NCBI RefSeq assembly: GCF_010730355.1
Contig: NZ_AP022576.1
Location: 434,001 to 498,000, forward strand
DNA length: 64,000 nt
Direction: 5' to 3'
From: Mycobacterium florentinum
Lineage (GTDB): Bacteria > Actinomycetota > Actinomycetes > Mycobacteriales > Mycobacteriaceae
A program made the position numbers and the translations under genes. Positions within the stretch are counted from its first letter, which is position 1, and every line of letters starts with the position of its first letter. The notes beneath the pieces are model-generated. The model was not told the origin of the DNA and did not search any database. It saw only the letters and a program-made list of their open reading frames with translations. This document shows positions 7,252-60,411 of the stretch, one piece after another.

Positions 7252-8987
<1,736 letters not shown>

Positions 8988-12063: not shown

Positions 12064-12090
12064 CCGTTGCCGTCGCTGAACGGGACGGCC

Positions 12091-13077: not shown

Positions 13078-13320
13078 GATTGTCAACTCCTCAGCCGCAA
13101 AGCGACGGACATGTTATGTGTTCGTGTCCAGGATGCCCAGGCAATCCTGAGACCAAACCACGCATGATCATGAGAATTGACCGTGAATTCATCCCAAATC
13201 CCGAGCTAGTGCCGTTTTGCCGGCCGTTTCGGGCCGTCAGCGATCCAAATGCTAACGACGGCCACCGACACAATTTCCGTTTCGACCCCGTACGACCGGG
13301 GCTGCTATCGTCGCTTGCTT

Positions 13321-14148: not shown

Positions 14149-14157
14149 CCGGGCGCG

Positions 14158-38999: not shown

Positions 39000-39008
39000 C
39001 GGTTCACC

Positions 39009-39872: not shown

Positions 39873-39973
39873 CCGCGAGGGTACGCGGCACGCGGCCATG
39901 ATGTCCATAGCCAATACGCATAATTTCGGATGACTCGTTCGCAAAGGACGAAGCAAAACAGCACTTATGTGTG

Positions 39974-39995
39974 ATGATGTATCTAGATAGTACCG
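39974..39995 (+). promoter_or_regulatory. Mce3R-like operator, site A (upstream of mce operon)
   Basis: ATGATGTATCTAGATAGTAC begins at 39974; its core TATCTAGATA (39980-39989) is a perfect 10-bp palindrome. The same word, with one mismatch over 16 bases, is found upstream of the LEH-mce3R pair (45428), and a related one between the mel2 and echA13 operons (53838-53859, minus strand). It is the only AT-rich signal in the 224-base gap between the ferredoxin gene and yrbE3A. Binding by Mce3R is inferred, not shown. Confidence 0.6.
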
Positions 39996-40096
39996 TCGTT
40001 GCGTCGGGCGAGTCGCCGCGTGCGCGGCCGTCCCGGGGGTTTTTTGCGGGCCCGCCTCCGGGCCGTTTCGCGTTGGCCGGGCCGAGCCTCATCCGG

Positions 40097-40303
40097 TCAC
40101 TCCGGAACCAACTGCAGCGCCCCCGACGGGCACAGTTTGACCGCGTTATGCACCCTGCGCGCGACGTCGGATTGGGCCGCGTTCGGGACCTCGTCGGCGG
40201 CCAGCAGCACGACGCCGTCGTCGTCCTGGTCGAAGAATTCGCCGGCGGTCATCACGCACATTCCGGCGGACATGCAGATCTCGCGGTCCGCGGCGATTTT
40301 CAT
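40097..40303 (-). CDS. 3Fe-4S type ferredoxin
   Basis: A 68-residue ferredoxin. The cluster ligands are in REICMSAGMCVMTAG (Cys near residues 10 and 16) and KLCPSGAL (Cys near residue 57), as in the 3Fe-4S ferredoxins that feed mycobacterial P450s. The ATG at 40303 overlaps the SnoaL stop by ATGA, and the SnoaL ATG likewise overlaps the P450 stop, so the three proteins are made together. It should pass electrons from a ferredoxin reductase to the P450. No dedicated reductase is adjacent. Confidence 0.88.
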   Translation of the reverse strand: MKIAADREICMSAGMCVMTAGEFFDQDDDGVVLLAADEVPNAAQSDVARRVHNAVKLCPSGALQLVPE

Positions 40304-40707
40304 GAGAAGGCCTGCAGGGTCAGCGCCGAATTCATGAAGTCGCGGAAGTGCAGCCACCGACCGTCGCGCAACGTAATGATGTGCGCGAACTCGGATTCCC
40401 ATTCGTGTCCGGTGGCCGGGCGCCGGAAACGTTGACGGCCCCAGGTGGCGAGTTCGTCGCCCTGGGCGATGAACTTCCACGCCTCCATCTCGACGATCTC
40501 GATGTGCTGCCCGACCGTGGCGAAGAACATCGTCGCTTCGTCGATGCCGCGGTAATCGCCAGCATACGGGATCTTTTCGGTGCCGTAGTAGGTGATTCGC
40601 ACCTCGGGATCGAGGTGACGCAGCGCGGTCTCGAGGTCGCCGGCCGGCACCGCGATGTAGATGGCTTTGGTCGCCTCGATATTGCGCGACTCGATGGTGG
40701 TTGTCAT
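40300..40707 (-). CDS. SnoaL-like (NTF2-fold) protein
   Basis: A 135-residue cone-fold protein (EATKAIYIAVPAGDLETALRH, EVRITYYGTEKIPYAGDYRG, GHEWESEFAHIITLRDGRW, HFRDFMNSA). SnoaL/NTF2 proteins catalyse cyclisation, dehydration or hydrolysis in small lipid or polyketide chemistry, or only bind a hydrophobic ligand. The ATG at 40707 overlaps the P450 stop by 4 bases and the stop overlaps the ferredoxin ATG, so it is co-translated in the middle of a P450-SnoaL-ferredoxin operon. It may hold or process the P450 product. Confidence 0.8.
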   Translation of the reverse strand: MTTTIESRNIEATKAIYIAVPAGDLETALRHLDPEVRITYYGTEKIPYAGDYRGIDEATMFFATVGQHIEIVEMEAWKFIAQGDELATWGRQRFRRPATGHEWESEFAHIITLRDGRWLHFRDFMNSALTLQAFS

Positions 40708-41969
40708 GAAAGGTGAAGGGGCAGACGGACATAGGCATGCGTCAGCAGGCTGGCGGTCTGCTTGGTGCCGGGATCGTCGGTCAGGGCGATCGTCTGGTAG
40801 CGATCCAGTACGGCGTTGAGTACCGCCATGACCTCCAGCCGGGCCAGTGATGCGCCGAGGCAGAAGTGCAGTCCGTGACCGAGCGAAAGCTGCTGGCGGA
40901 TGTTCGGCCGATCGATGTCGAGTCGATCCGGATTCGCAAACACCGCGGGATCCCGGTTGGCCGAACCGAAGAACAACGCCACCCACTCCCCCTTGCGGAT
41001 CAGCTTGCCGTCGATCTCGACGTCGCGGGTCGCGATGCGGAACAGGCGTTGCGGCGGCCCGTCGAGCCGAAGTGTCTCCTCGACAAAGGGATTCAGCAGG
41101 GTGCGGTCGGCGCGCAGGCGTGCCTGGACCTCGGGCTCGCGCGCCAGTGCGTGCAGCAGGTTGCCAATCAGAAAGGTCGTGGTCTCGCTGCCGGCCACCA
41201 CGAGGGTGACGCAGAACCGCACGATTTCCTCCGGCGTCAGCCGCTGCCCGTCCACCTCGGCGCGCAGCAGCGCCGAAATCAGGTCCTCGGCGTCCTCCAC
41301 TCCTTCGCTGTCGTCACCGCTCTCCCGCTCCGCCAGCCGGGCGGTGTGCTCGGCGAGCCGGGTGGCGAACGTCGTCACCATCTCCTCATTGCTGGCGATG
41401 CGTTCTTCGGGGGTCAGCGATGACGAGAGCATGAAGGCGTTGGCCCACCGCCGAAACCGGACATGATCGCCGTCTGGCAATCCCAGCAGGCGCACCATGG
41501 CCCGGGTCGGAACCTCGGCGGCGAATTCCATCACCTCCACGGTCGGATCGCCGCCGTCATCGAGTGACGCGAGCAGCTGCGGGATCAGCTCGCCCAGCCA
41601 ACCCTCGAGTTTCTTGACGCGGCGCGGCGAGAACGCCTGGCTGACCAGCTTTCGTTCCACCTCGTGCTTGGGCGGGTCGGTATTGACCAGCATCAGGCTC
41701 GGGGCCGACGAGGCCTCCTGCAGGGGATCGCGCGACGAGAAGGTGGTGCTGTCCTTGGCGGCCTCGAAGACCTGGTCGTAGCGGAAGAGCGCCCACGCGG
41801 TCACGGGCTCGTCGGCACCGGGAATGGTTCCCGGCGGCCAATCCCGATACCCCGCAACGGGTGAGAGCTTTCTCAGCTGTTCATACAGCGGATACGGATT
41901 GGCGACGCCAACTGGTGTGGGAAGCAATTCGATGGCTGAAACCGATTCCGAAACGGATGCTGAGGACAT
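40704..41969 (-). CDS. cytochrome P450
   Basis: A 421-residue P450. The I-helix oxygen-activation motif is VVAGSETTTF, the K-helix is EETLRLDG, and the heme loop is LGHGLHFCLGASLAR with the heme Cys near residue 370 (Leu replaces the usual first Phe). It hydroxylates an unknown hydrophobic substrate; its placement next to mce genes and SCP2 suggests a sterol or terpenoid. The ATG at 41969 has AGAGG 9 bases upstream; in-frame GTG 41987 and TTG 41999 are alternatives. A CCCCnAACGGGGG box at 42005-42018, shared with the SCP2-ALDH operon, lies about 35 bases upstream of the ATG. Confidence 0.92.
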   Translation of the reverse strand: MSSASVSESVSAIELLPTPVGVANPYPLYEQLRKLSPVAGYRDWPPGTIPGADEPVTAWALFRYDQVFEAAKDSTTFSSRDPLQEASSAPSLMLVNTDPPKHEVERKLVSQAFSPRRVKKLEGWLGELIPQLLASLDDGGDPTVEVMEFAAEVPTRAMVRLLGLPDGDHVRFRRWANAFMLSSSLTPEERIASNEEMVTTFATRLAEHTARLAERESGDDSEGVEDAEDLISALLRAEVDGQRLTPEEIVRFCVTLVVAGSETTTFLIGNLLHALAREPEVQARLRADRTLLNPFVEETLRLDGPPQRLFRIATRDVEIDGKLIRKGEWVALFFGSANRDPAVFANPDRLDIDRPNIRQQLSLGHGLHFCLGASLARLEVMAVLNAVLDRYQTIALTDDPGTKQTASLLTHAYVRLPLHLS

Positions 41970-42004
41970 GCGATCAGCCTCTGTCACGCGCGGCGGCAAA
42001 TCGA

Positions 42005-42018
42005 TCCCCCGTTGGGGG
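42005..42018 (-). promoter_or_regulatory. CCCC-AAC-GGGG box upstream of the P450 operon
   Basis: On the minus strand this reads CCCCCAACGGGGGA. Matching words, CCCCGAACGGGGGAAG and CCCCAAAGGGGAAG, lie upstream of the SCP2-ALDH operon (45294-45309 and 45272-45285). The box is nearly palindromic and sits between the divergent P450 and GAF-LuxR genes, so the LuxR protein is the prime candidate for binding it. Confidence 0.55.
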
Positions 42019-42084
42019 GGACTCCTGCCCCCTTACGAGGTGAATTTCTGATTTCCGCCCTGCCACGGCGCTGCCCAGAGGAAA

Positions 42085-43299
42085 GTGAGCATCGTGATTG
42101 GTGTCAACGTCGACGATGTCATTTCCGGAATGTCCGATCCCCCCGCGCCCAACGCGCTCGCCGACGGTAACCATCCCGGTTGGGCGTCGCGTCCGGCCCG
42201 GGAATCGGAGGCCGCGCGCCGCTACCGCGAGGCATTTCAAGAATGCGACGTCGATCCCACCGACGACCCGTTGGCGGTGGTGGCCGAGGCCATCGACACC
42301 AAGGCGGCGATCGTACGTAATGCGTTGGAACCGCACGGGGATGAGCACGCGCTCAACGCACTCGACGGGTTGCTGGACCTGTGCTCGCTGGAGAGGGAGC
42401 TGATCGAGGACGGTGCCAAGCGGCGCACCTTCGCATTGCTGGCCGTGCAGGAAGGCTTGAGCAAGCTACGTGCCGTCGACGATGTCGCGACGATCGTCGA
42501 TCGGGCGCCACGCGAGATGGTGGAATCGTGTGGATTCGACCGTGCCGTGCTCTTTCGTGTGCACGAGGGCCGAATGGTCATGGAATCAGCGTATTTCGGT
42601 GAGGACACCGAGGGCGCCGAGAAGATGGTCGCCTTCGCGCAGTCCGTCGCACCCCTGCTGGATCACATGCTGATCGAAACGCAGATGATCCGTCGCCACG
42701 CGCCCGCGATCGTGCGCGACGCCCGCAACGACCCGCGGGTCAACCGGCCGATCATCGATTTCTCGCTGACGCATTCGTACTGCGCGGCTCCGATCATGCC
42801 GACGGGCAAGGTGATTGGGTTCCTGCACGCCGACCGGCTTTACTCGGGCCGCATTGTCGACGAGATCGATCGCGACACGGTATGGGCATTCGCCGAGGGT
42901 TTCGGCTACGCCTACGAACGCACGGTCTTGCTGGAGCGAATGCGCCGCCAGCACGACGAGGTCCAGCGGGCATTGGCGTCCGCGGACCAGGCGGCTCGCG
43001 CGCTGCAGGACGCGGACCTGGACCTGCGCAAGATCGAGCCGGTCGAACGCAGCCCCGCCGCACGGTCATTGGCCGAGGTGCAGACGCGGGTGATGACGAT
43101 GCTGACGCGCCGTGAGGTCGAGGTCCTCCGGCTGATGGCGGCCGGCCGCACCAATCAGCAGATCGCCGATGAGTTGGTGATCTCGGCGGGCACGGTCAAG
43201 TCTCACGTGAAAAGGGTGCTGCGCAAGCTGAACGCGACCAACCGCGCGGAGGCGGCGTCGGCGTATGTGCGCCTGGCCAGTGTGCCCGAAGTGGGTTGA
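42085..43299 (+). CDS. GAF-domain LuxR-type regulator
   Basis: A 404-residue regulator. A GAF-like sensory domain spans about residues 120-290 ([59 protein letters not shown]), followed by a coiled helix and a C-terminal LuxR helix-turn-helix ([33 protein letters not shown]). The start is GTG at 42085 with AGAGGA close upstream; the GTG at 42094 is an alternative. It is divergent from the P450 operon and adjacent to the SCP2-ALDH operon, which share a CCCC-AAC-GGGG box, so it probably activates both. The ligand sensed by the GAF domain is unknown. Confidence 0.85.
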
Positions 43300-43302
43300 C
43301 AC

Positions 43303-44826
43303 TCAGCCGATGTCGGCGTTTCCGAGCAAGACGTCGTACGGCTTGGCCTCGCGTCCGCCGGACAGGTCCAGGTGCACCGTTTTGACCTCCGTGTAGGCAT
43401 CGAGCGCGTCGGGGCCCAGTTCGCGTCCGATCCCGCTTTGCTTGTAGCCGCCGAACGGCAGCCGGCAGTTGATCTGGTGTGCGTCGTTGATCCACACGCT
43501 GCCGGACCGAATCTGTTCGGCCATCGCCAATCCCCTGGCGTTATCCGATGTCCAGATGCTGGCCGCCAGGCCGTAATCGCTGTCGTTGGCGATCGCGACG
43601 GCTTGTTCGTCGTCGTCATACGGGATGACCACGAGCACCGGGCCGAAGACTTCCTCGCGCGCGATCGCCATGTCGTTGGAGACGCCGGTGAGAATTGTCG
43701 GCGCGACCCAGAACCCCTTGTCGAACGATCCACCGGTGATCGCTTCTCCACCCAGCACGACGCTGGCGCCGGCCGCTCGCGCCTCGTCGACGTAGGTCAG
43801 GATGCGAATGCGCTGCGCCGCGTCGATCACCGGACCCAGATCGGTATCCCAGTCGCGGGTCGGGCCGACCACGATCGTTTTCGCGCGCCCCACGAGGCGC
43901 TCGACGAACTCGTCGTGCAGTGCGGCGGGAACCAGTGCGCGGGTGCCGGACTCGCAGATCTGACCCGAGTAGGCGAAGCAGCCGTAGAGCACTCCGTCGA
44001 CGGCCAGCTCGAGGTCGGCGTCGTCGAGAACAATCGACGGGCCCTTGCCGCCCAGCTCGAGGGTCACCTGTTTGACCGTGCTCGATGCCAGCCGCATGAT
44101 TTCGCGTCCGACCGCGGTGGAGCCGGTGAACGCGATCTTGCCGACGTCGGGATGCGAGGCGAGCCGCGCCCCGGCAACGTGGCCTTCCCCCGGGACGACG
44201 TTGAGTACGCCCTCCGGCAAGCCGTTGCGTTCGGCGATGCGGGCGAATTCCAGGATCGACAGCGGGGTGTGTTCGTCGGGCTTGACGACGACGCTGTTGC
44301 CGGCCGCGAGTGCCGGCCCTATCTTCCAAATGGTCAGCAGCAGGGGGAAATTCCACGGCGTTATCGCGCCAACGACACCGATCGGCTCGCGATGCACGAC
44401 GCTTTGACTGAGCACGGGGAAGGTCTCGACCGGTGCGGGCCGTTGCCATGCGTAGTTCTCGGCGAGGTCGGCGAAATAGCTGAAGTGACTCAGCGCGTAC
44501 CCGATGTGAAATCCGGTCGCCAATCGGATGGTGGCACCGTTGCAGGCCATCTCCAGCTCGATGAGTTCATCGCTGGCCTGGTTGGCCGCGGCAGCGATCC
44601 GGCGCATCACCTCGGCGCGATCCTGCGGTGTCGCGCGCGACCAGGTGCCCCGCTCGAAGACGGCCTTGGCGGTCGTGACCGCCGCATCGACATGTGCCGC
44701 ATCGCCTTGCGCGACGGTCGCGATCAACCTCTCGTCACCGGGGTCGAAGATCTCCATTCGCCGGTCGGAGTCGACCGGCCGGCCGCCGATCAACATCGGG
44801 TGGTGCGGGACAGTCACGGTGGTCAT
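43303..44826 (-). CDS. aldehyde dehydrogenase
   Basis: A 507-residue NAD(P)-dependent aldehyde dehydrogenase. Markers are TPWNFPLLLTIWKIGPAL, FTGSTAVGREI, VTLELGGKGPSIV (general base Glu), the catalytic Cys in GQICESGTRALV, and EVFGPVLVVIPYD. It oxidises an aldehyde, probably one made from the P450 or LEH products. The ATG at 44826 lies only 4 bases after the SCP2 gene stop (44831), so the two form one operon; the longer frame to 44859 is a shadow. It converges on the LuxR gene with a 3-base gap. Confidence 0.92.
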   Translation of the reverse strand: MTTVTVPHHPMLIGGRPVDSDRRMEIFDPGDERLIATVAQGDAAHVDAAVTTAKAVFERGTWSRATPQDRAEVMRRIAAAANQASDELIELEMACNGATIRLATGFHIGYALSHFSYFADLAENYAWQRPAPVETFPVLSQSVVHREPIGVVGAITPWNFPLLLTIWKIGPALAAGNSVVVKPDEHTPLSILEFARIAERNGLPEGVLNVVPGEGHVAGARLASHPDVGKIAFTGSTAVGREIMRLASSTVKQVTLELGGKGPSIVLDDADLELAVDGVLYGCFAYSGQICESGTRALVPAALHDEFVERLVGRAKTIVVGPTRDWDTDLGPVIDAAQRIRILTYVDEARAAGASVVLGGEAITGGSFDKGFWVAPTILTGVSNDMAIAREEVFGPVLVVIPYDDDEQAVAIANDSDYGLAASIWTSDNARGLAMAEQIRSGSVWINDAHQINCRLPFGGYKQSGIGRELGPDALDAYTEVKTVHLDLSGGREAKPYDVLLGNADIG

Positions 44827-44830
44827 GGAC

Positions 44831-45232
44831 TCAGGCCACCCCGCGATCTTTGTCGGCAATCTTGGCCCGGTACATCGGGAACAGCGGCTTGGTCAGCGGG
44901 ATGAGCCGCAACAGCTTGCCGATTTGGCCCTTGGCCTTGACCTGGCCCTTGGCCAGCCCGACGGTGAGGTTGTAGTCACCGCGCCAGAATCGGTCCGCCA
45001 CATCGGCGGGCATCGTCATGGTGATATCGGGCTTGAGATCGCTTGGGCCGCAGATGACTTGGAAATCTTCGCGCAGCGCGACGGTGAGTTCGTAGTCCGG
45101 ATCGGTGTAGATGACCCGCAGCACGATGTTGGCGGCCCGGAATTTGGGTCCCGACTGCGGGTGTTCTCCCGCCTCGCGAAAGACGCCGCCGATGTACCTG
45201 TCGATCTCGCTGGGATCGCTGAAGAAACTCAT
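44831..45232 (-). CDS. SCP2 sterol-binding domain protein
   Basis: A 133-residue protein with an SCP2-like fold (LRVIYTDPDYELTVALREDF, ITMTMPADVADRFWRGDYNL, VGLAKGQVKAKGQIGKLLRL). SCP2 domains bind sterols and fatty acyl chains; here it may deliver the substrate or product to the P450 and ALDH. The ATG at 45232 is used because the domain begins just after it; the frame to 45343 is an overlap artefact. Upstream lie two CCCC-AAC-GGGG type boxes (45272-45285, 45294-45309). Confidence 0.8.
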   Translation of the reverse strand: MSFFSDPSEIDRYIGGVFREAGEHPQSGPKFRAANIVLRVIYTDPDYELTVALREDFQVICGPSDLKPDITMTMPADVADRFWRGDYNLTVGLAKGQVKAKGQIGKLLRLIPLTKPLFPMYRAKIADKDRGVA

Positions 45233-45271
45233 GATCGGCAATGCAATCACCGCGGCGACGTCAGGGTTAGT

Positions 45272-45285
45272 CCCCAAAGGGGAAG
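45272..45285 (+). promoter_or_regulatory. CCCC-AAC-GGGG type box 1 upstream of SCP2-ALDH operon
   Basis: CCCCAAAGGGGAAG, a near palindrome 40 bases upstream of the SCP2 ATG. A second copy starts 22 bases further on (45294), two helical turns away. Both resemble the box upstream of the P450 operon. Confidence 0.5.
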
Positions 45286-45293
45286 TCTTGGTG

Positions 45294-45309
45294 CCCCGAA
45301 CGGGGGAAG
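45294..45309 (+). promoter_or_regulatory. CCCC-AAC-GGGG type box 2 upstream of SCP2-ALDH operon
   Basis: CCCCGAACGGGGGAAG matches the P450-side box (CCCCCAACGGGGGA on the minus strand) at 12 of 13 aligned positions, the best agreement of the three copies. Tandem copies 22 bases apart fit cooperative binding of a dimeric regulator. Confidence 0.55.
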
Positions 45310-45427
45310 CGCGGACGGTGGCGATACGCGTCCGGGGCGACAACCGCCCGGCATATGTCCATGATCAGTATGGCTCTGCGCGCTGCCTGAAGCGATGAAT
45401 TGCGGTGTTATCGCGTATATATGTCAA

Positions 45428-45449
45428 ATGATGTATCTTGATAATCCGA
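45428..45449 (+). promoter_or_regulatory. Mce3R-like operator, site B (upstream of LEH-mce3R)
   Basis: ATGATGTATCTTGATAATCC (45428-45447) matches site A (39974) over ATGATGTATCTnGATA with a single mismatch. It contains GATAAT, which could be the -10 of the LEH gene whose ATG is at 45496. The downstream mce3R gene makes this a likely autoregulatory site. Confidence 0.6.
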
Positions 45450-45495
45450 TACAAATTACGCCAGCGCGGCAAATGCTCAAGGAGGAGCCGTTCGC

Positions 45496-45888
45496 ATGAC
45501 CGATACCAAGGAAGCAAGCGAGAGGCTCGTCCGAGACTTTCTGGGGTCCTGGCAGGCGCGCAGCCTGGAGAACATCTGCAGCGGCTTTGCCGATGACGCG
45601 GTCTACCACAACGTGCCGGTGGCGCCGATCGAGGGCATTGCCGGCATCCGTGCGGTATTCCAGGCGTTTCTGGACGCGTTCGCCGATGCCAAGCTGGACA
45701 TCCTCTCACTCGCCGCGGCGCCCGGTTTGGTGCTCGTCGAACGTATCGACTACTTCACGATGAACGACGGCCGGAAAGTCGTGCTCCCGGTGACCGGGGT
45801 GTTCGAGGTCAAGAACGGCAAGATCGCCCGGTTCAGCGATTACTTTGATCTGGCGGACTTCGAGGCGCAGAGCGGAATGAAGCTGTAG
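45496..45888 (+). CDS. limonene-1,2-epoxide hydrolase-like (LEH/SnoaL fold) protein
   Basis: A 130-residue LEH-fold protein. The key residues of limonene epoxide hydrolase (Arg-Asp pair and a second Asp) are recognisable in [20 protein letters not shown] and [20 protein letters not shown], so epoxide hydrolysis is chemically possible. The ATG at 45496 has AAGGAGGAG-like RBS (CAAGGAGGAG) 8 bases upstream. It is 53 bases upstream of mce3R in the same orientation, preceded by the Mce3R-like site B, so the pair is probably one autoregulated unit. Confidence 0.82.
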
Positions 45889-45941
45889 CCGATGCGTCTG
45901 GCAGGATTGGTAGTTCGCGCGCACGAAGGGGGCTCGAGTCG

Positions 45942-47144
45942 ATGGGGACCACCAAGGCCCTAGCTCAACCCGTCAGGCGCCGGCCGAAGGACCGAAAGCA
46001 GCAGATTCTCGAGCAGGCCGTCGGGCTCTTCACCGAGCGGGGTTTCCACTCGGTCAAGTTGGAAGACATAGCCGAGGCGGCGGGAGTCACCGCGCGCGCG
46101 TTGTATCGCCACTACGACAACAAACAGGCACTGCTCGCCGAAGCGATACGAACCGGCCAGGATCAGTATCAAATTGCGCGCCGCCTCACCGCCGGCGAGG
46201 CCGAGCCGACGCCTCGACCGCTGAGCATCGAGCTACCGGACCACATCGCCGCGGCCGTCGCATCGCGATCGCTGGCGGTGTTGTGGCAGCGCGAGGCCCG
46301 TTACCTCAACGAGGGCGACCGCGCCGAGGTCCGGCGCCGCATCAACACGATCGTCGCCGGGATGCGCGACAACGTCGTGCTGGAGGTGCCGGGCCTGAGT
46401 CCGCAGCACGCGGAGCTGCGCGCGTGGGCGGTGGCCAGCACGCTGACCGGCCTGGGGCGGCACAATCTCACCCTTCCGGCCGATGAACTCAAAGACCGCC
46501 TTTACCAGGCGTGTATGGCCGCGGCGCGGACGCCTCCCGTCGCCGAGTTGACGCCGCTGGATGCGGCGCGCGACGACGGTGATGTGTTGTTCTCCCGGTA
46601 CGAAACCCTGCTGGCCGGGGGCGCCCGGCTGTTCCGTGCGCAGGGCTATCCGGCCGTCAGTACCAGTGAGATCAGCAAGGCGGCCGGCATCGCGGGTCCG
46701 GGTCTCTATCGATCCTTCTCTTCCAAGCAGGCCATCCTGGACGCGCTCATCCGCCGGCTCGACGAGTGGTGGAGCCTCGAGTGCATCCGCGCTGTGCGAA
46801 CCAACTCCAAAGCCGCGCAACGTCTTCGGGGCCTGGTTCAGGGGCATGTCCGGATCAGCCTGGATGCCCCCGACCTAGTTGCCGTTTCGATCACCGAGCT
46901 GCCCCACGCGTCGGCCGAGGTGCGCGACGGATACCTGAGAAATCAGGCCGACCGTGAAACCGTGTGGATCGAGCAGATCACCCGGCTGGTACCGCAGACC
47001 ACCGCCGTCGAGGGGCGACTGCTGGTTGCCGCGGCAATCAGTTTTATCGAAGACGTCGCGCGCACATGGCATCTCACGCAATTCGTCGGAGTGGCCGACG
47101 AGCTCACCGCCATTGCGATGTCAATCCTGACCAGCCGGGCCTGA
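45942..47144 (+). CDS. mce3R: double-TetR-domain regulator Mce3R
   Basis: A 400-residue protein with two TetR units in one chain: a first DNA-binding domain at about residues 18-65 ([40 protein letters not shown]) and a second at about 210-260 ([39 protein letters not shown]), each followed by its own ligand domain. This architecture and sequence are those of Mce3R, the repressor of the mce3 operon and of the mel2/fadE17-fadE18 genes in M. tuberculosis. All expected targets lie in this window. One chain can bind asymmetric operators, which fits the asymmetric motif AyGAwGTATCTwGmTArT. It ends 11 bases before the facing SDR gene. Confidence 0.93.
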
Positions 47145-47155
47145 GGCGCGACCGC

Positions 47156-47926
47156 TCACCACAGTGCGGCGATGGTTCCACCGTCGGCGATCTGCGTGGT
47201 TCCGGTGATCATCGACGCGTCGTCGGACAACAGGAATGCCACGATGCTGGCCATCTCCTCGGGTGCGGCCATCCGGCCCTGCAGGCGCGCGATCATGTTG
47301 CTGGCGCCGCCTTCGCCCAGCGTCTCGTCGAATGTCGTCATCGCGATCTGTTGCATCGGGGTGTCGACGAATGCCGGCAACAGTGCGTTGGCCCGGATGT
47401 TGGACGAACGCAGCTCCGCGGCGGTGATGCGGCTGAGATGGCTGACGCCGGCCTTGGACATGCCGTATGCCCCGCTGCCGCCCACGCCGATATGGCCGGC
47501 GAGCGACGACATGCTGACGATCGCCCCGCCGCCCCGCTCGACCATCCTCGGCGCCGCGTGCTTCGTGCACAGCCAGGCGCCGCGCAGGTTGATCGCGATG
47601 ACACGATCGAAGTCCTCCACGGTGGTGTCGAGTAGCGATGCCATGTGGACGACGCCGGCATTGGCGACCAGTTTGTCCACGCCGCCGAACGCCCTGACGC
47701 AGGCCTCGACCATGCCGATGACCTGCGTCTCGTCGCTGACGTCCACCCGATAACCAATTGCGCCGGGACCGATCTCGGCCGCGGCCGCATCCGCCGCGCC
47801 TCCGTTGATGTCCGCGCACAGCACGCCACAACCCTCGGTGGCAAGTCGCTGGGCCACCGCGAGGCCGATCCCGGCGCCGGCGCCGGTGACGATCGCGGCC
47901 TTACCGGCCAGGTCTGGATGGTTCAA
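47156..47926 (-). CDS. short-chain dehydrogenase of the mel2-like operon (Rv1941-like)
   Basis: A 256-residue SDR with cofactor motif TGAGAGIGLAVAQRL (about residues 13-27), the NAG region VANAGVVHM, and catalytic YGMSKAGVSH (Tyr and Lys near residues 155-160). The start is TTG at 47926, which overlaps the ribA1 stop (TTGA) and gives exactly the length recalled for Rv1941. Frames further upstream are shadows inside ribA1. It is the last gene of the five-gene operon and probably oxidises a secondary alcohol formed by the upstream oxygenases. Confidence 0.85.
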   Translation of the reverse strand: MNHPDLAGKAAIVTGAGAGIGLAVAQRLATEGCGVLCADINGGAADAAAAEIGPGAIGYRVDVSDETQVIGMVEACVRAFGGVDKLVANAGVVHMASLLDTTVEDFDRVIAINLRGAWLCTKHAAPRMVERGGGAIVSMSSLAGHIGVGGSGAYGMSKAGVSHLSRITAAELRSSNIRANALLPAFVDTPMQQIAMTTFDETLGEGGASNMIARLQGRMAAPEEMASIVAFLLSDDASMITGTTQIADGGTIAALW

Positions 47927-48993
47927 CCCACGGCCGCCAGCGCTTCGGTTGCTATGCCGTGCTCGCGAATTGCCCCGAACATCACAAGGCCGAATCCTGG
48001 CATGTCGTCGGAGAGTTGGAGGGCATACAACCCGAGGTCGCGCAGAATCCACGCCACGGTCTCCGGCATCGGGTCACCGGCAGCGTCGCGCCGGGCGAAC
48101 AGGCCACAGGCCCGCGGCGGCCCGCACGGGCGCAGGTAGATCACCACGCCGCTGCCCTGCGCCGACATCCGGGCCAGTGCGGTGTTGAGTTCGCCGCCGC
48201 ACCGGCACGCCTTCGAGCCGAACACGTCCCCCGTCAGGCACTCGACGTGGACGTGCAGCGGCACGGGGACTCCGGCATCCGCCGAGCCGATGATCATCGC
48301 CAGATGCTCGCCGCCATCGGTTCCGCGGAAGCCGATGACGCGTGAATCGCCCGCCCAGGTGGGCAGGACGGTCTCGGTCAGCCGGGCGACCTGAGGTTCG
48401 GTCCGGCGCCGGTAGGCCACCAGCTCGTCGATCGAGACGACCGGCAGCCCATGTTCGATGGCGAATTCGGTCAGCTCGGCACCGCGCGCCATCAGCGTGG
48501 GATTGCGCCGCGAGACGATCTCGCACACAGCGGCCGCCGGTCGGCGCCCGGCGAGGCCGGCGAGGTCGACGGCTGCTTCCGCGGGGCCGTGCCGGCCCAG
48601 CACCCCGTCGCTGCCGGCCCGCAGCGGCACCACGTGTCCCGGGCGATGGAAATCGGCAGCCGCACCGGTGCCGGACGCCAGCGCGGCGATCGTGCGGGCG
48701 CGGTCCGTTGCCGAGATTCCCGTGCCGCTCCCGCGAACGTCGACCGACACGCAGATCGCGGTATTCCGGTGGGACATCGGCGGGAGGTTCAGCCGGTCGC
48801 ATTCGGATTCGGGCAGCGCGACGCGCACGTATCCGGAGGTGTGGCGAACCATGAACGCCAGCAGCGGTGGGGTGGCGGCGTCGGCGGCGAACACAAGATA
48901 GCCGTCGCCGTCCGAATCGCCCTTGACGACAACGGGTTGGCCCGTAGCTATCGCCGTGATCGCGCGCAGCACCCGCACGTCGGTGGTCTTCAT
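47923..48993 (-). CDS. ribA1: RibA1-like protein, degenerate DHBP synthase/GTP cyclohydrolase II
   Basis: A 356-residue protein with an N-terminal DHBP-synthase-like domain (residues 1-205) and a C-terminal GTP-cyclohydrolase II-like domain. The DHBPS part keeps TGISATDRARTI and LAFMVRHTSGY, but the ENEGD metal motif is replaced by GDSDGDGY (25-32) and the GHTEA metal His by GPAEA (135-139). The GCHII part keeps the zinc cysteines 252, 263 and 265 (ECLTGDVFGSKACRCG) but the GxEGRGIGL loop is replaced by LRPCGPPRACGL. Both active sites therefore look inactive. In the mel2 locus this gene is the luxH-like member; it may bind flavin or GTP rather than make riboflavin. Confidence 0.9.
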   Translation of the reverse strand: MKTTDVRVLRAITAIATGQPVVVKGDSDGDGYLVFAADAATPPLLAFMVRHTSGYVRVALPESECDRLNLPPMSHRNTAICVSVDVRGSGTGISATDRARTIAALASGTGAAADFHRPGHVVPLRAGSDGVLGRHGPAEAAVDLAGLAGRRPAAAVCEIVSRRNPTLMARGAELTEFAIEHGLPVVSIDELVAYRRRTEPQVARLTETVLPTWAGDSRVIGFRGTDGGEHLAMIIGSADAGVPVPLHVHVECLTGDVFGSKACRCGGELNTALARMSAQGSGVVIYLRPCGPPRACGLFARRDAAGDPMPETVAWILRDLGLYALQLSDDMPGFGLVMFGAIREHGIATEALAAVG

Positions 48994-49012
48994 CCGTGCT
49001 CCCCCGCGGTTC

Positions 49013-50083
49013 TCATGAACCCAGCCCGCTCAGGAAATCGAGCAATAACCGGTTGGTCTCCTCCGGCGCTTCCTGCTGAATCCAGTGCCCGACATCGGCA
49101 ATCATGTGGATACCGCGGCAATCCGTCATCACGTCGGCCGTGCGCTCGACGGCCTCGGCGCCCCAGGTGGTACCGACGTCGTACTGGCCGCCGATGAACA
49201 ATGCGGGCGGCGTGAGCGGTTTGCCTTCTTGATCGGCCAGGTCGTGCCAGTCGTTGTCGATGTTGTGATAGAAGCTCAACGGTCCGCCGAAGCCGGAACG
49301 CTCGAACTCCCCGGCGTAGAAGTCGGCATCGTCGTCGGTGAACCAGACCGGCATCGTTTCCGGATAGACGAAGGCGTCCTTGAGCTTTGCGCCTTCGGAC
49401 ATGCACAGCGGGCCGGCGCGAATCACGTCGATCGGGTCCATGGACGCCAGGTCGACTCCCGCGTCGACCGCTGCCTTGGTGGCCGCGATCATCCCCTCAC
49501 CGGAGACCGTGTACGTCAGCCCCACTAGCCAGCCGCGCACGTCCTCCTCGATTTCGGCGATGATCCCGTCCTGCGCGGAGAAGTAGTCCTGATACCAAAT
49601 CCGGCCCTCGCCCGCGAGCTCGATGTGGTAGTCGTTGGGACGGTGCTCGCCAAACGGGCTGCCCGGCAAGCCGATTACGCCCCGACCCGCGAACGGAACG
49701 CTGATCCCCACCACCCCCGCGCACCTTTGGGGGTGCAGCCACGCGAAGGTCCATGCGACGGGCGCACCCCAGTCATGACCGATGACGATCGCTTTGTCGG
49801 CGCCGTACGCGTCGACGACGCCGAGCACATCACCGACCAATTCCTTGATGCGGTAGGCCGATTGGACGCGGTACTTCGACGACCGTCCATAGCCGCGCTG
49901 ATCGATCGCCACCACGCGATAGCCCGCGGCGGCGAGTGCGGGAATCTGGTTGCGCCACGAGTACCAGGACTCCGGAAACCCGTGCAGCAGCACAACCAGC
50001 GGGCCCTCTGGGCTGGGGGGGCCGTCTTCGACGGCATGAATGCGCGTACCCCGACAGTCCAAAAACCGATGAACCTGCGACAT
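49013..50083 (-). CDS. ephB: epoxide hydrolase EphB
   Basis: A 356-residue alpha/beta epoxide hydrolase closely resembling M. tuberculosis EphB (Rv1938). The Asp nucleophile is in GHDWGAPVAW (Asp104), the oxyanion segment is HGFPESWYSWRN, ring-opening tyrosines lie in the cap (RIWYQDYFSAQ, SFYHNIDND), and the acid-His pair is in GGQYDVGTTWG and VGHWIQQEAPEE. It opens an epoxide to a diol. The ATG at 50083 matches the homologue (MSQVHRF). It lies 19 bases before ribA1; the flavin reductase gene found between them in M. tuberculosis is absent. Confidence 0.93.
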   Translation of the reverse strand: MSQVHRFLDCRGTRIHAVEDGPPSPEGPLVVLLHGFPESWYSWRNQIPALAAAGYRVVAIDQRGYGRSSKYRVQSAYRIKELVGDVLGVVDAYGADKAIVIGHDWGAPVAWTFAWLHPQRCAGVVGISVPFAGRGVIGLPGSPFGEHRPNDYHIELAGEGRIWYQDYFSAQDGIIAEIEEDVRGWLVGLTYTVSGEGMIAATKAAVDAGVDLASMDPIDVIRAGPLCMSEGAKLKDAFVYPETMPVWFTDDDADFYAGEFERSGFGGPLSFYHNIDNDWHDLADQEGKPLTPPALFIGGQYDVGTTWGAEAVERTADVMTDCRGIHMIADVGHWIQQEAPEETNRLLLDFLSGLGS

Positions 50084-50107
50084 CATCTTCGCCTTCCTGG
50101 TCGAGTA

Positions 50108-52642
50108 CTACAGAGTTTGGCCCGGCACGGAACCGCCCACGGCGACAAGCCGTTCCGCGGTATCCGCGACCGGTACCGTCCGATTTTCGAAATTGCGGGC
50201 GATCAGAGTCTTCTGACCCGACAATCTGGTCCGCGCCCATTTGCCGATGACACGGCTGGCAACCCCGGGCGTCATCAGCGCCAGCGGGGGCTTGACGAGG
50301 TGGACGACCGCCAAGAACTCGCGATAGGCGTCGAGATCGTCGTGCACCAATTCCATCAGGCGATCCATGTACCAGGTGAGGATCCGGAAATAGAAGGGGC
50401 GCTTCTTGTCGACGTCTTTCATCCAGTCGAAGCGCAGGTTCTGTTCGCGGATCACGAACCACGCCGTGTGGGCCAACTTCGCGATCTTCTTGTAGTAGCG
50501 GCGCGGCAGATCTTGGTGGTCCGGGCCGTATTTGCCCAGCAGCACCTGCATCTCCCGAACTTCCTTGAGCGCCAAACTCATACCCAAGCCGGACACCGGG
50601 TCGGCGCTGGTGTACGCGTCGCCCACGGCCAGCAGCGCACGGGGCAGGTGGCGCTTGCGCTCGTAGTGCAACCAGAGCATGTTCGGATAGCGGAAGTTGT
50701 AGATCGCCGAGGCCGGCTCGAGTCCGTCGATGTTTTCTCCGACCACCGGAGAGGGCATCAGGTTGGCGAATTCGCGGAACTCCCGGGCGGTGCGCGGTGG
50801 TGAGTAACAGTTGTATGCCACCAGCGATGTCGACAGGATGGTGCGAGAGCTGTCGGTGTAATACTGCGCGGCGTAGGTGTCCTCGAAGGGGCGATACGCG
50901 TAGCAGATCACCATGACCTTGTCCTGCCACTGCCGGTCCGGCGGAACCCGGTGCTGCATCGTCGAGTAGAAGCAGTTGATGATGTCCTGCTCGACTTCGG
51001 GTGCCCCGATGCCGATGCGATCCAGGAATTCCGGGACGCGGGTGTTCTTGCCCGATGCGTCGACCACGAATTCGGCCGGCAGCACCTCGAAACCGCCGTC
51101 CTTGCTGACGGCAACCCCGATGATGGCGTTGTTCGCCCGGTCGAAGACGAGGTCGTCGACCTCCGACTCGTAGCGGAAGTCGATCCGCGGCTCGTCGTCA
51201 AGGCGGCGCCGTACACACCACTCCAGCAACGGCCGTCCCGCACAGACGATTTCGATATCGCTGGTGCCGGGCTTCTTCCAGCTTCCGCCCAACCGGATTC
51301 GGTATTGCGCGGCCATGTCGACCTTGAACGCGCCCTCGCGCACCATGTCGTCGACGATGCCCGGAAAGAACCGCTCCAACTCGATCTGGCCGGCGGTCAG
51401 CAAGTGGTGCAGGTGCCAGCCCTGCGCGGCACCGGGTCTGCCCTCGCGGCGACGATGCGGATCGTCCTTCTCGAGCACGATCACCCGATCGAAAGTCTCG
51501 GTGAGCACCTTCGCCGCGGCGATGCCCGCAATGCTGCCGCCGATGACCACCGCGGTCCCGCGACCACGCCGGCGCACATCGGCAATGTCGATGCCGGCCT
51601 GATCGAGGTGAACCGGACCGCGGCGCCGCGCCGCCCCGGTCGGGACGAACTTCTCGTAGTAGAGCCCGACGCGATGGAACCCGTTGTTGTCCAGCCAGGT
51701 TCGGGTGGCTTCGACCATCGGGGCCGGACCGCACAGATAGACGTCGGCGTCGCCACCGGCCAGCATGTCCTCGCTCAGAAGATCCGTGACCAGGCCGGTC
51801 GAACCGTGCCATTCGGCGTCCGGACGCGCGACGATGACGTGCACCTCCACTGCCGTCACCCGGTTGCGCAGCGCCTTGAGCTCGTCGAGCTTGCACAGGT
51901 CTTCGCTAGAGGTCACGCCGTAGAGCAAGGAGACGGGGTGGGCGGTGTCGGCGCTCAGGCTCTCGGCCATCGCCAGGATCGCCGACAACCCCGTGCCGCC
52001 GGCGACCAGGATCACCGGCCGGACGACGGGACGCAGACCGAAGTTGCCCTTGCTGCACCGCAGGGCGATGTGGTCACCCGGCTTGGCGCGATCGCGCAGG
52101 TAGTTCGACATCACCCCGTCGGGCAGCAGCCGGATGATGAATTCCAGTTCACCGCTGCCGTCGGCGGGATGAGCGTAGGAGTAGTTGCGCCAGGTATTGG
52201 TGCCGGGCACCTGCAGCTGGGCGAACTGACCCGCCTGGTAGTTCAGCGCCCCGGTCGTCAACGAGACCTTCACCCGCAGCACCGCGGTGCTGGGCGACAA
52301 CAAATCGACCCCGGTCACCACGCCGTCACAGGTAACCAGCAGTGCCGCGTTGTCGTCGGCCGGATACTGCAGTTCGATCCGGCAGTCGGAGGTGGCAAAC
52401 GTCTGACAGGTCAGGATCTTTCGCGCATCCCGCTCCACGTCGGACAGGCCTTCGGTGCGGCCCATCTCGTACTCGCCCGCGGTGCAGGTGGCCACGCAGG
52501 TGCCACAGATTCCGCTTTGGCATTCGCTGACGATGGCCACGCCGTGTTCCTCGGCGGCATCCAGGACGGTCTGGTCCGGCCGCACCGGCATCGTCTTATG
52601 CGTTCCGTCCGAATACCCTACGGTGACTTCGCGATCCGCCAT
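50108..52642 (-). CDS. three-domain oxygenase: ferredoxin/FNR reductase fused to FAD monooxygenase (Rv1937-like)
   Basis: An 844-residue multidomain flavoprotein. Residues 1-95 form a plant-type 2Fe-2S ferredoxin (ECQSGICGTC and LTC; Cys 41, 46, 49 and 79). Residues 100-340 form a ferredoxin-NADP reductase module (RNYSYAHP for FAD, AGGTGLSAILAMAE and CGPAPMVEA for NAD). From about 365 a FAD-dependent oxygenase follows (VVIGGSIAGIAAAKVL, GRPLLEWCVRRRL, VGDAYTSADPVSGLGMS). It may therefore be self-sufficient, taking NAD(P)H electrons to a hydroxylation site. The ATG at 52642 is supported by GGGAGAGGGCG upstream. Part of the mel2-like operon; the luxG-like member. Confidence 0.9.
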   Translation of the reverse strand: MADREVTVGYSDGTHKTMPVRPDQTVLDAAEEHGVAIVSECQSGICGTCVATCTAGEYEMGRTEGLSDVERDARKILTCQTFATSDCRIELQYPADDNAALLVTCDGVVTGVDLLSPSTAVLRVKVSLTTGALNYQAGQFAQLQVPGTNTWRNYSYAHPADGSGELEFIIRLLPDGVMSNYLRDRAKPGDHIALRCSKGNFGLRPVVRPVILVAGGTGLSAILAMAESLSADTAHPVSLLYGVTSSEDLCKLDELKALRNRVTAVEVHVIVARPDAEWHGSTGLVTDLLSEDMLAGGDADVYLCGPAPMVEATRTWLDNNGFHRVGLYYEKFVPTGAARRRGPVHLDQAGIDIADVRRRGRGTAVVIGGSIAGIAAAKVLTETFDRVIVLEKDDPHRRREGRPGAAQGWHLHHLLTAGQIELERFFPGIVDDMVREGAFKVDMAAQYRIRLGGSWKKPGTSDIEIVCAGRPLLEWCVRRRLDDEPRIDFRYESEVDDLVFDRANNAIIGVAVSKDGGFEVLPAEFVVDASGKNTRVPEFLDRIGIGAPEVEQDIINCFYSTMQHRVPPDRQWQDKVMVICYAYRPFEDTYAAQYYTDSSRTILSTSLVAYNCYSPPRTAREFREFANLMPSPVVGENIDGLEPASAIYNFRYPNMLWLHYERKRHLPRALLAVGDAYTSADPVSGLGMSLALKEVREMQVLLGKYGPDHQDLPRRYYKKIAKLAHTAWFVIREQNLRFDWMKDVDKKRPFYFRILTWYMDRLMELVHDDLDAYREFLAVVHLVKPPLALMTPGVASRVIGKWARTRLSGQKTLIARNFENRTVPVADTAERLVAVGGSVPGQTL

Positions 52643-52670
52643 TGGTTCGCCCTCTCCCGACCTGGAGCCG

Positions 52671-53780
52671 TTAGACGATCGCAGCGACCGGCTTCTTGGC
52701 AATGCGCGCGTTGAGTCTGGGCATCACTTCTTCGGCCAGCAGCCGCAGCGATTCCTTCCACGGTCCCGGGTTGTCGCTGTAGTCGAACCCGAGCACCAGC
52801 AGGTGACCGAACCCGCCCACCTGGTCGTAGGTGGCTTCGAGCTTGTCGACCACCGTCTGGACCGAGCCGACCACGAAGGTGTTTTCGGCCAGGTACTCCG
52901 GTGTTACGTCGTCGTCGGGCACCGAGGGGTTGTGCTTGTAGAACTTGGTCATGCCGAACATGCGGAACGTGGGCAGCGTGTATTCGCGCATGGCGCGACC
53001 CATCGTGCCGTCGACCGCGTAGCGGAAGGCCTGCTCGTCGGTCTCGGCGACGAGAACCTCACGCACCAACCGCCAGTCGCGGCGATCGGGAGTCCGGCCG
53101 CTGCGTTCCGCGCCTTCGAGCACCGCGTCCCAGTGGGTGGCGACGTATTCGGCGTTGAGGTCGAGGCTCATCGGTAGGTAGCCGCGCTCGCCGGCAAGCT
53201 TGAGAGTCTCGGAGCCCGCGCTGAATCCGGTGACGCCGATCGGAGGGTGCGGCTTCTGGAACGGCTTGATATGACGCTTCATCAGGCCCTCGAACATCGG
53301 CGCGATCCCGTTGGCGTTCCAGTACTTTCCGCGGTGCTCCCAGGGCTCGTCTTCGGTCCAGATGCGCAACATGATCTCGAGCGCCTCACGCGTCATCTCG
53401 CGGTGCTCGCCGTTCTTTCCGTCCACGTCGTAGAGTGCCCAGTCACCCGGGATTCCACTGGCTCCCACACCCAGCATGAACCGGCCCTGGGCGAGGTGAT
53501 CGAAATAGGCGACACGATGGGCTAATTCGACCGGATGGTGGTACGGCAGCAGATGCGCGCCGGGCGCCAGCTTGATGTTCTTGGTCCGCAGCAGCGCCTG
53601 CGCCAACAGCAGGTCGGGGGCGCAGATCGGCTCCCAGGGCACGGTGAAATGTTCCCCGACCCACGCTTCGACGTACCCGAGTTGATCGGCCAGCTCGATC
53701 ATGTCGAGGTCCCATTGGGTGGCGTCATAGAGGCTCTGCTCCGGTGGATGGGCCGGCATCAGGAATATTCCGATCTCCAT
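52671..53780 (-). CDS. luciferase-like monooxygenase, first gene of the mel2-like operon (Rv1936-like)
   Basis: A 369-residue bacterial luciferase-fold flavin monooxygenase: MEIGIFLMPAHPPEQSLYDA, YVEAWVGEHFTVPWEPI, LGVGASGIPGDWALYDVDGK and PPIGVTGFSAGSETLKLAGE are typical. It needs reduced FMN from a partner; no free reductase gene is in the operon, so the reductase module of the Rv1937-like protein or a distant reductase must supply it. The ATG at 53780 has GGGAAGG upstream. A TTGTAA-17-TAGTAC promoter on the minus strand contains the Mce3R-like site C. Confidence 0.9.
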   Translation of the reverse strand: MEIGIFLMPAHPPEQSLYDATQWDLDMIELADQLGYVEAWVGEHFTVPWEPICAPDLLLAQALLRTKNIKLAPGAHLLPYHHPVELAHRVAYFDHLAQGRFMLGVGASGIPGDWALYDVDGKNGEHREMTREALEIMLRIWTEDEPWEHRGKYWNANGIAPMFEGLMKRHIKPFQKPHPPIGVTGFSAGSETLKLAGERGYLPMSLDLNAEYVATHWDAVLEGAERSGRTPDRRDWRLVREVLVAETDEQAFRYAVDGTMGRAMREYTLPTFRMFGMTKFYKHNPSVPDDDVTPEYLAENTFVVGSVQTVVDKLEATYDQVGGFGHLLVLGFDYSDNPGPWKESLRLLAEEVMPRLNARIAKKPVAAIV

Positions 53781-53837
53781 GGGGCAAACCTTCCCGTTTC
53801 TTGTTAGCCGCGTACCTGCTTCAGTAGGTATACCACA

Positions 53838-53859
53838 GTACTAGCAAGATACTTCGTTA
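53838..53859 (-). promoter_or_regulatory. Mce3R-like operator, site C (mel2/echA13 divergent region)
   Basis: The minus strand reads ACGAAGTATCTTGCTAGTAC, matching sites A and B in the core GTATCTwGmTA. It lies in the spacer of a TTGTAA-17 bp-TAGTAC promoter for the luciferase-like gene, so binding would block that promoter. Confidence 0.6.
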
Positions 53860-53884
53860 CTTACAAGAGCCAATTTGCATGGGA

Positions 53885-53904
53885 ATTTACCGATACTTCG
53901 TTCA
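53885..53904 (-). promoter_or_regulatory. second half-matching Mce3R-like site D
   Basis: The minus strand reads AACGAAGTATCGG at this position. The word GATACTTCGTT on the plus strand occurs at 53848-53858 (site C) and again at 53892-53902, 44 bases apart, about four helical turns. Only the AACGAAGTATC half matches the longer motif. Confidence 0.5.
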
Positions 53905-53992
53905 TGTTAGCGCGTATTGACTATGGACATCCTGACGGAGTGCCGCGTAACCTCGCACAGGTCACCGGTTTGGCGCGCAGTAAGGAGCGGTC

Positions 53993-54934: not shown

Positions 54935-54949
54935 GTCCGGACGCCATCA

Positions 54950-56182: not shown

Positions 56183-56190
56183 CACCTCCA

Positions 56191-60200: not shown

Positions 60201-60411
60201 ATACGGCGAGGAGATCTGTGCCTGGATCAAGATGCGGCCGGACCGCCGGCCGTTGGACGCCGACGCCGTGCGGGCCTTCTGCGCGGGGAAACTCGCGCAC
60301 TACAAGATTCCCCGCTATGTCCACATCGTCGACGAGTTCCCGATGACCGTCACCGGAAAGGTGCGCAAGGTCGACATGCGGGCCGAAACGGTCCGGCTGC
60401 TTGGGTTATGA
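57277..60411 (+). CDS. fused double acyl-CoA/AMP ligase (two FadD-type domains in one chain)
   Basis: A 1044-residue protein made of two complete ANL-superfamily ligases. Domain 1 (about 1-510) has [13 protein letters not shown] (163-174), [18 protein letters not shown] and the C-terminal Lys in [11 protein letters not shown] (about 494). Domain 2 (about 515-1044) has [12 protein letters not shown] (about 693-704), [23 protein letters not shown] and TGKVRKVDM. All key residues are present in both, and no carrier-protein domain lies between. The two halves differ enough to be separate subfamilies; the second resembles FadD35-type ligases. The start is GTG at 57277, 6 bases after fadE18. It probably activates two different acyl substrates, or one at both ends, for the adjacent FadE17-FadE18. 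Confidence 0.92.

What the first reader, a model, noticed from the sequence alone, without database searches (positions are those of the whole stretch)
39974..53902. One asymmetric motif marks the mce3 operon, LEH-mce3R and the mel2/echA13 divergent promoter: a contiguous Mce3R regulon
Seen directly: ATGATGTATCTAGATAGTAC (39974, upstream of yrbE3A), ATGATGTATCTTGATAATCC (45428, upstream of LEH-mce3R) and ACGAAGTATCTTGCTAGTAC on the minus strand (53838-53859), consensus core GTATCTwGmTA, plus a half-site at 53892-53902. Mce3R is known to repress the mce3 operon and the Rv1933c-Rv1941 genes in M. tuberculosis. Here the motif is found at every expected target plus a likely autoregulatory site. 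A two-headed TetR protein fits an asymmetric site.
Basis: partly seen in the sequence, partly recalled or inferred. Interest (0 to 1): 0.8.

Follow-up and report, generated by a model that had tools for sequence, protein, structure and literature searches.

The report
Paired-box operators of the Mce3R repressor
In this mycobacterium one repressor's binding boxes sit at three promoters of a single lipid-metabolism gene cluster, and each turns out to be half of a two-box switch with a nearly constant 76-base spacing that recurs in related mycobacteria.

Summary
Only four exact core matches exist in the 6.2 Mb genome; the fourth overlaps the edge of another TetR gene's palindrome.

In relatives, a B model trained on one promoter class and tested on the others finds its best match, within 300 bp on either strand, at 75-78 bp from box A in 120 of 120 cases. 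A composite B-gap-A pattern is in 57 of 58 genomes with mce3R and 1 of 239 without. Boxes are 69-96% identical between species, the spacer about 30%. Box B carries the -35 of the leftward promoter (yrbE3A, echA13).

This matches the two cooperative 25-bp Mce3R sites published for the M. tuberculosis mce3 promoter (PMC11667970) and extends them to mel2/echA13 and mce3R's own promoter. A known regulon with a sharper operator rule.

The parts
39901..39919 (+). Box B1 of the mce3 (yrbE3A) operator, ATGTCCATAGCCAATACGC
   Evidence: 76 bp 5' of A1; pair score 76.0 bits; best B match in the cross-validated test
39974..39996 (+).
39878..39907 (-). Leftward promoter of yrbE3A: -35 TGGACA (39907-39902, inside box B1), 18 bp, -10 TACCCT (39883-39878)
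   Evidence: TANNNT 18 bp from the -35 in 40 of 43 yrbE3A operators; control rate 0.0003 per position
45355..45373 (+). Box B2 of the LEH-mce3R operator, ATGTCCATGATCAGTATGG
   Evidence: 76 bp 5' of A2; B score 26.8 bits
45428..45450 (+).
53835..53857 (-).
53912..53930 (-). Box B3 of the mel2/echA13 operator, ATGTCCATAGTCAATACGC
   Evidence: 76 bp 5' of A3 on the minus strand
53924..53953 (+). Promoter of echA13: -35 TGGACA (53924-53929, inside box B3), 18 bp, -10 TAACCT (53948-53953)
   Evidence: TANNNT 17-18 bp from the -35 in 51 of 51 mel2/echA13 operators
45942..47144 (+). mce3R, double-TetR repressor, 400 aa; 82% identical to the solved M. tuberculosis Mce3R, with the published HTH contact residues
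   Evidence: PDB 9b7y, E 1e-209; alignment
45496..45888 (+). LEH, limonene-1,2-epoxide hydrolase-like, probably in one unit with mce3R
   Evidence: Pfam PF07858, E 2e-21; co-transcription inferred
39009..39782 (-). yrbE3A (MlaE permease), first gene of the mce3 operon; start codon uncertain, frame open to 39956
   Evidence: Pfam PF02405; divergent to LEH-mce3R in relatives without the inserted block
47156..53780 (-). mel2-like operon: luciferase-like (52671-53780), Rv1937-like, EphB-like, Rv1940-like, Rv1941-like genes; Rv and mel names are recalled, families
53993..57270 (+). echA13-fadE17-fadE18-like genes (enoyl-CoA hydratase, acyl-CoA dehydrogenases); gene labels recalled, the last not tested against a family library
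40097..45232 (.). Block between the mce3 and LEH-mce3R operators: ferredoxin, SnoaL, P450 (-), LuxR/GAF regulator (+), aldehyde dehydrogenase, SCP2 (-). No two-box operator inside it

Best explanation
The motif is box A of a two-box Mce3R operator (B, about 76 bp, A, same orientation) at three promoters of one cluster: mce3, LEH-mce3R and mel2/echA13. Mce3R monomers each use two different helix-turn-helix heads to bind one asymmetric box (known from the M. tuberculosis structure). The Mce3R homodimer binds B and A together, cooperatively. Box B covers the -35 of the leftward promoter (yrbE3A or echA13), and box A lies at the rightward promoter (LEH-mce3R or mel2), so one complex shuts both directions. 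Shown here: the boxes, their spacing, conservation, the overlap of box B with a conserved promoter, and co-occurrence with mce3R. Inferred: that Mce3R of this species binds them, that box A overlaps the rightward promoter, and that the fixed spacing reflects one dimer bridging both boxes.
For: Two-box model: 138 hits in 65 loci (1.31 Mb), 0 in the same sequences reversed; 137 of 138 are upstream of mel2/echA13, yrbE3A or LEH/mce3R, the other is at a locus edge with a yrbE3A-type leader. In 118 of 138 both boxes reach 14 bits. Offsets: 76 bp 89, 77 bp 41, 75 bp 4, 78 bp 4 (only 75-78 was allowed in that scan). Spacing without that limit, cross-validated: 120 of 120. Co-occurrence with mce3R: 57 of 58 genomes against 1 of 239, Fisher p 5e-59; of 107 hits 102 lie on the contig of an mce3R copy, within 15 kb of one, 4 on other contigs of fragmented genomes, 1 in the genome without mce3R. 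Box identity 0.69-0.96 against spacer 0.30-0.32. Leftward -10 at 17-18 bp from the -35 in box B in 51 of 51 mel2/echA13 and 40 of 43 yrbE3A operators. Published for M. tuberculosis: two 25-bp asymmetric sites 53 bp apart; full probe 2.4 nM, without region 1 49-59 nM, without region 3 above 100 nM; homodimer. Published DNA-contact residues conserved.
Against: No binding or expression data for this species. M. tuberculosis DNA was not among the genomes I could read (best identity to its Mce3R 87% in 396 genomes), so the match to the published regions is by position. My spacing is 76 bp start to start; the published figures imply 78. Loci and control genomes are related, so the p-value overstates independence (L010 and L110 are near copies; L130 and L131 are further contigs of the genomes of L002 and L003). 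At the mce3R promoter the boxes are weaker: both reach 14 bits in 29 of 42 there, in 8 of them box A is under 5 bits so the hit rests on box B (a ninth such hit, in L116, lies between yrbE3A and LEH), and one locus of 60 (L120) shows none. Part of box B's conservation may be promoter conservation.
Confidence: 0.88

Rival explanations
1. The boxes are conserved core-promoter elements (a -35 in B, a -10 in A) of divergent promoters, and Mce3R binds elsewhere or nowhere special.
For: B contains TGGACA with a TANNNT 17-18 bp downstream in most mel2/echA13 and yrbE3A operators; A contains TATCTT, itself a TANNNT. Where the block has removed the rightward gene, box A is weak in some relatives (7 of 19 under 24 bits, 2 of them under 14).
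Against: Conservation spans about 18-20 bp per box. In 12 of 19 loci with the block, the window included, box A1 keeps 29 bits or more although no rightward gene follows it. In the mce3R class, which there includes the one edge hit, B is kept while the leftward -10 is absent in 30 of 44. Footprints and EMSA in M. tuberculosis show two such bound regions.
Confidence: 0.06
2. The boxes are operators of another regulator of the cluster, such as the LuxR/GAF protein in the inserted block.
For: A LuxR-type gene lies in the block.
Against: The boxes are in relatives where the LuxR gene was not found in the fetched stretch (e.g. L012, L016, L031-L036), and they track mce3R in 57 of 58 genomes.
Confidence: 0.02
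3. Chance similarity in AT-rich intergenic DNA of related species.
For: Some relatives are close.
Against: The spacer beside box B is no more alike than chance (about 0.30), the reversed-sequence control gave 0 hits, and the cross-validated spacing held in 120 of 120.
Confidence: 0.01

Closest known systems
M. tuberculosis Mce3R operator at the mce3R-yrbE3A intergenic region (PMC11667970; abstract, passages and sections 17, 18, 20 read)
   Same: Two asymmetric sites with a fixed gap upstream of yrbE3A, a double-TetR repressor, a conserved element between the sites.
   Different: Here the same pair is also at mel2/echA13 and LEH-mce3R, in many species; in the window clade a block of genes separates the mce3 pair from the LEH-mce3R pair.
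Mce3R regulon of M. tuberculosis (Santangelo 2009, doi 10.1099/mic.0.027086-0; not read, seen only as cited in PMC11667970, PMC11036813, PMC9044949 and PMC4482099)
   Same: mce3, mce3R itself and the mel2 genes as targets (the range Rv1933c-Rv1941 is from the finding and recall).
   Different: Here the targets lie in one contiguous cluster.
Ordinary TetR-family operators (KstR, KstR2, BkaR)
   Same: TetR-family repressors, several of lipid or branched-chain metabolism.
   Different: Those are palindromes (PMC4482099, passages read); this one is a direct pair of non-palindromic boxes.

Membership tests
Mce3R (double TetR repressor) | One chain with two TetR units and two HTH heads | tested here: met
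   Full-length match to PDB 9b7y, E 1e-209; TetR families hit both halves
Mce3R (double TetR repressor) | DNA-contact residues of both heads (published R9-R11, K13, R15, R49, R53, H54, K58; R219, P253, Y256, R257, K262) | tested here: met
   Same residues at the aligned places of the solved protein
Mce3R regulon operator | Two non-palindromic sites of about 25 bp with a fixed gap upstream of yrbE3A | tested here: met
   B1/A1, 76 bp start to start; the published gap of 53 bp implies 78
Mce3R regulon operator | Sites at the Rv1935c-Rv1936 (echA13/mel2) promoter and at mce3R itself | tested here: met
   B3/A3 and B2/A2 in the window; over the scanned loci 51 of 51 and 59 of 60, the latter including hits with a degenerate box A
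Mce3R regulon operator | Binding by Mce3R in vitro | not testable with these tools
   No wet experiment possible
mce3 operon | YrbE and Mce proteins, divergent from mce3R | tested here: met
   MlaE, MlaD and Mce4_CUP1 families; directly divergent in relatives without the block, separated here by it

The most novel reading that the evidence does not exclude
The nearly invariant B-76-A layout is a built-in clamp: one Mce3R homodimer, each monomer holding one asymmetric box, ties the two boxes of a divergent promoter into a small DNA loop or wrap, so both directions are repressed as one unit. This single operator code is the whole direct regulon across mycobacteria, including species that have lost mce3.
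Probability: 0.4. Interest if true: 0.65.

Novelty: new member of a known kind. Interest (0 to 1): 0.45.

Why it matters
It turns an operator described as large and complex (PMC4482099, passage) into a rule (two defined boxes, 75-78 bp apart) that predicts the Mce3R regulon in a genome. It makes the published looping idea directly testable through spacing. It also shows mce3R outside the pathogens: the repressor and its boxes occur in species such as M. sphagni and M. vinylchloridicum (recalled as environmental) that have no mce3 operon near mce3R, against a statement in PMC11667970.

Tried and rejected
Half-site at 53892-53902: rejected, in the window only, 1 of 51 operators. Fourth genome match at C1:5190649: overlaps the edge of a palindrome before another tetR gene, taken as unrelated. 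Conserved leader peptide read from the ATG inside box B: rejected, since ATG becomes ATA and stops appear in relatives; the conserved stretch is better read as -35 and -10. Idea that mel2 was the first target and mce3 was added later: not supported; in the Mce3R tree the mce3-less rapid growers are nested, so loss is likelier, though several backbone forks are not firmly supported. The M. gordonae group counts there as 'no_mce3' only because its second two-box operator, probably that of mce3, lies 13-15 kb away. Extra regulon members: a relaxed composite pattern in the own genome gave the same three places only. Rfam: nothing at 39000-55000 at the gathering threshold. M. tuberculosis operator itself: no genome with its Mce3R was among the 396 searched. 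SCP2-ALDH as a further target of B2: left open; no -10 at the expected distance in the window (sequence).

Rows dropped: L124-L128 as duplicates of L006, L021, L037, L017, L001; L042, a short partial match to a Nocardioides protein, was not used. The two Pseudonocardia loci (L038, L039) were kept among the 65 and have no two-box hit.
Full report
What was checked. The core GTATCTWGMTA with up to one mismatch has 4 matches in the window against 0.37 expected, and only 4 exact matches in the 6.2 Mb genome, 3 of them here. With up to one mismatch allowed the genome has 25 matches and the reversed control 50, so looseness destroys specificity. The fourth exact match overlaps the edge of a palindrome upstream of a different tetR gene and is taken as unrelated.

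Genes. The protein at 45942-47144 matches the solved M. tuberculosis Mce3R (PDB 9b7y) over nearly its whole length, E 1e-209, 82% identical with the published DNA-contact residues of both heads unchanged. LEH (45496-45888) is a limonene-epoxide-hydrolase-like protein. The mce operon runs leftward from yrbE3A; the mel2-like operon runs leftward from 53780 and ends 11 bp from the convergent mce3R; echA13 and acyl-CoA dehydrogenases run rightward from 53993. Gene names beyond the family names are recalled. In relatives without the P450/SnoaL/ferredoxin/LuxR/ALDH/SCP2 block, yrbE3A is directly divergent from LEH-mce3R, the arrangement of mce3R and mce3 described for M. tuberculosis.

One search returned 42 loci with a relative of mce3R (two Pseudonocardia and one partial Nocardioides match among them); 28 further stretches came from unnamed mycobacterial genomes. 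After dropping 5 duplicates and the Nocardioides locus, 65 loci including the window (1.31 Mb) were scanned. The motif recurs upstream of the same genes, in the same orientation. Its consensus, about AATGATGTATCTTGCTAGTACTGT, is not palindromic over its length; sites were first picked by the core, so only the outer columns are independent evidence.

The partner box. A weight-matrix scan showed a second, weaker resemblance 76 bp 5' of the main site at two window promoters, and the same register gave it at the third. In the first tabulation the best match to the box-B pattern within about 100 bp upstream of box A lay at 75-78 bp for 107 of 108 sites; the exception was the LEH site of L104, where a matrix later gave only a weak B at 76 bp (8.3 bits). 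The test was then made fair: box A sites of 14 bits or more were taken without regard to B (121 in 65 loci; 120 at the three promoter classes, 1 at a locus edge), a B model was trained on mel2 promoters and tested on the others, and vice versa, over 300 bp either side and both strands. The best match was at 75-78 bp, same strand, in 69 of 69 and 51 of 51. A two-box model with 75-78 bp spacing finds 138 operators and none in the reversed sequences; in 118 both boxes reach 14 bits. By locus: 51 of 51 mel2/echA13 promoters, 40 of 40 yrbE3A promoters, and 59 of 60 mycobacterial loci at LEH or mce3R; L120 is the miss. The last class is the weakest: in 8 of its 42 hits box A is under 5 bits and the hit rests on box B. 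In some species one pair serves both yrbE3A and LEH-mce3R.

Genome-wide co-occurrence. Of 297 mycobacterial genomes, 58 have mce3R at E 1e-60. The single-box 15-mer is in 51, all among those 58, reversed control 0. The composite two-box pattern is in 58 genomes, reversed control 0: 57 with mce3R plus one probable chance match in GC-rich DNA (G149); the missed one, G031, has the pairs with a variant box A (L104). Of 107 matches, 102 are on the contig of an mce3R copy and within 15 kb of one (for two in G125 that is its second, partial copy); 4 lie on other contigs of fragmented genomes and 1 is G149. In the own genome even a relaxed composite gives only the three places. So by this pattern no distant target is visible; weaker or single-box targets would be missed.

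What is under selection. Between species, boxes are 0.73-0.92 (B) and 0.69-0.96 (A) identical, the spacer next to B 0.30-0.32, about chance level; a middle stretch (AAAT..CGAAGCAAA-like) is 0.46-0.66. That middle element may be 'region 2' of PMC11667970; its role is unknown.

Promoters. On the strand opposite to box B, TGGACA (one base from TTGACA) is followed after 17-18 bp by TANNNT in 51 of 51 mel2/echA13 and 40 of 43 yrbE3A operators, and in 14 of the remaining 44. So box B overlaps the -35 of the leftward promoter. Box A lies 65-114 bp before the mel2 start codon and contains two TANNNT words in 51 of 51 mel2 operators, so its overlap with the rightward -10 is plausible but not settled. 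That the boxes are more than promoter parts is suggested by A1, which keeps 29 bits or more in 12 of 19 loci where the block leaves no rightward gene behind it (8 to 23 bits in the other 7), and by B boxes kept without a leftward -10.

Mechanism. PMC11667970 (abstract, passages and sections 17, 18 and 20 read) reports that each Mce3R monomer binds an asymmetric 25-bp site with two different heads, that two such sites 53 bp apart lie upstream of yrbE3A, that the full probe binds at 2.4 nM, probes without region 1 at 49-59 nM and the probe with regions 1 and 2 only above 100 nM, and that Mce3R is a homodimer. [quoted passage not shown] in the window that place is box B1, and box A1 takes the place of region 1. 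This assignment is by position. The most likely working is cooperative binding of the dimer to B and A, closing both divergent promoters at once. Looping between sites is the authors' suggestion; they note their probes were too short for it. The near-constant spacing found here supports a bridged complex but does not prove it.

Evolution. In a tree of 62 Mce3R proteins, 14 rows of rapid growers (13 without an adjacent mce3 operon, 1 with too short a contig) form one nested clade, support 97/92, so loss of mce3 is likelier than later gain; backbone forks are partly weak and the root is by midpoint. In that clade the mel2/echA13 pair is in all loci where that region was fetched, and a pair at mce3R in 13 of 14, with a degenerate box A in 5. 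mce3R is found in species such as M. sphagni and M. vinylchloridicum, recalled as environmental, whereas PMC11667970 calls its orthologs exclusive to a subset of pathogens.

Known and new. The regulon, autoregulation and the non-palindromic two-site operator at mce3 are published for M. tuberculosis. Santangelo 2009 was not available and may contain part of the mel2 motif, since PMC11667970 says it predicted motifs in both intergenic regions. Of 64 held papers with the word Mce3R, 40 were listed and 6 opened, in passages or sections; a narrower search listed 3. None of what I saw states the common 76-bp pair at all three promoters, which is not proof that it is unpublished. Hence a new member of a known kind, with a sharper rule.

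Noticed in passing
window 39942-39958 (+) and 53874-53890 (-): A third conserved element (AAAT..CGAAGCAAA-like, then CTT) lies between boxes B and A, clearest at yrbE3A and mel2/echA13; it does not score as an A or B box. Possibly region 2 of the published operator.
   Followed up: partly
window about 39835-39875 (-): Downstream of the yrbE3A -10 a short stretch reading (M/V)SLVHFDLSGG is conserved; in many relatives it stops soon after, here it stays open into yrbE3A. Could be a small leader peptide or a transcript-start element.
   Followed up: partly
window 57277-60411: A 1044-aa open frame looks like two acyl-CoA ligase units end to end (two YTSGTTG motifs in the translation).
   Followed up: no
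window 50108-52702: An 864-aa frame joins a ferredoxin/FAD/NAD reductase (Fer2, FAD_binding_6, NAD_binding_1) to a second half with only a weak FAD-binding match.
   Followed up: no
window 40097-45232: The P450/SnoaL/LuxR part of the block occurs in more relatives than the ALDH/SCP2 part, so it may have been assembled in steps.
   Followed up: partly
G125 contig C1, about 5683-14818: A second, partial mce3R copy with its own two operator pairs, a likely duplicated cluster.
   Followed up: no
L043 4656-4678: Palindrome GATACAGACTA-G-TAGTCTGTATC between a probable membrane-protein gene and a tetR-like gene, a probable operator of that regulator.
   Followed up: no
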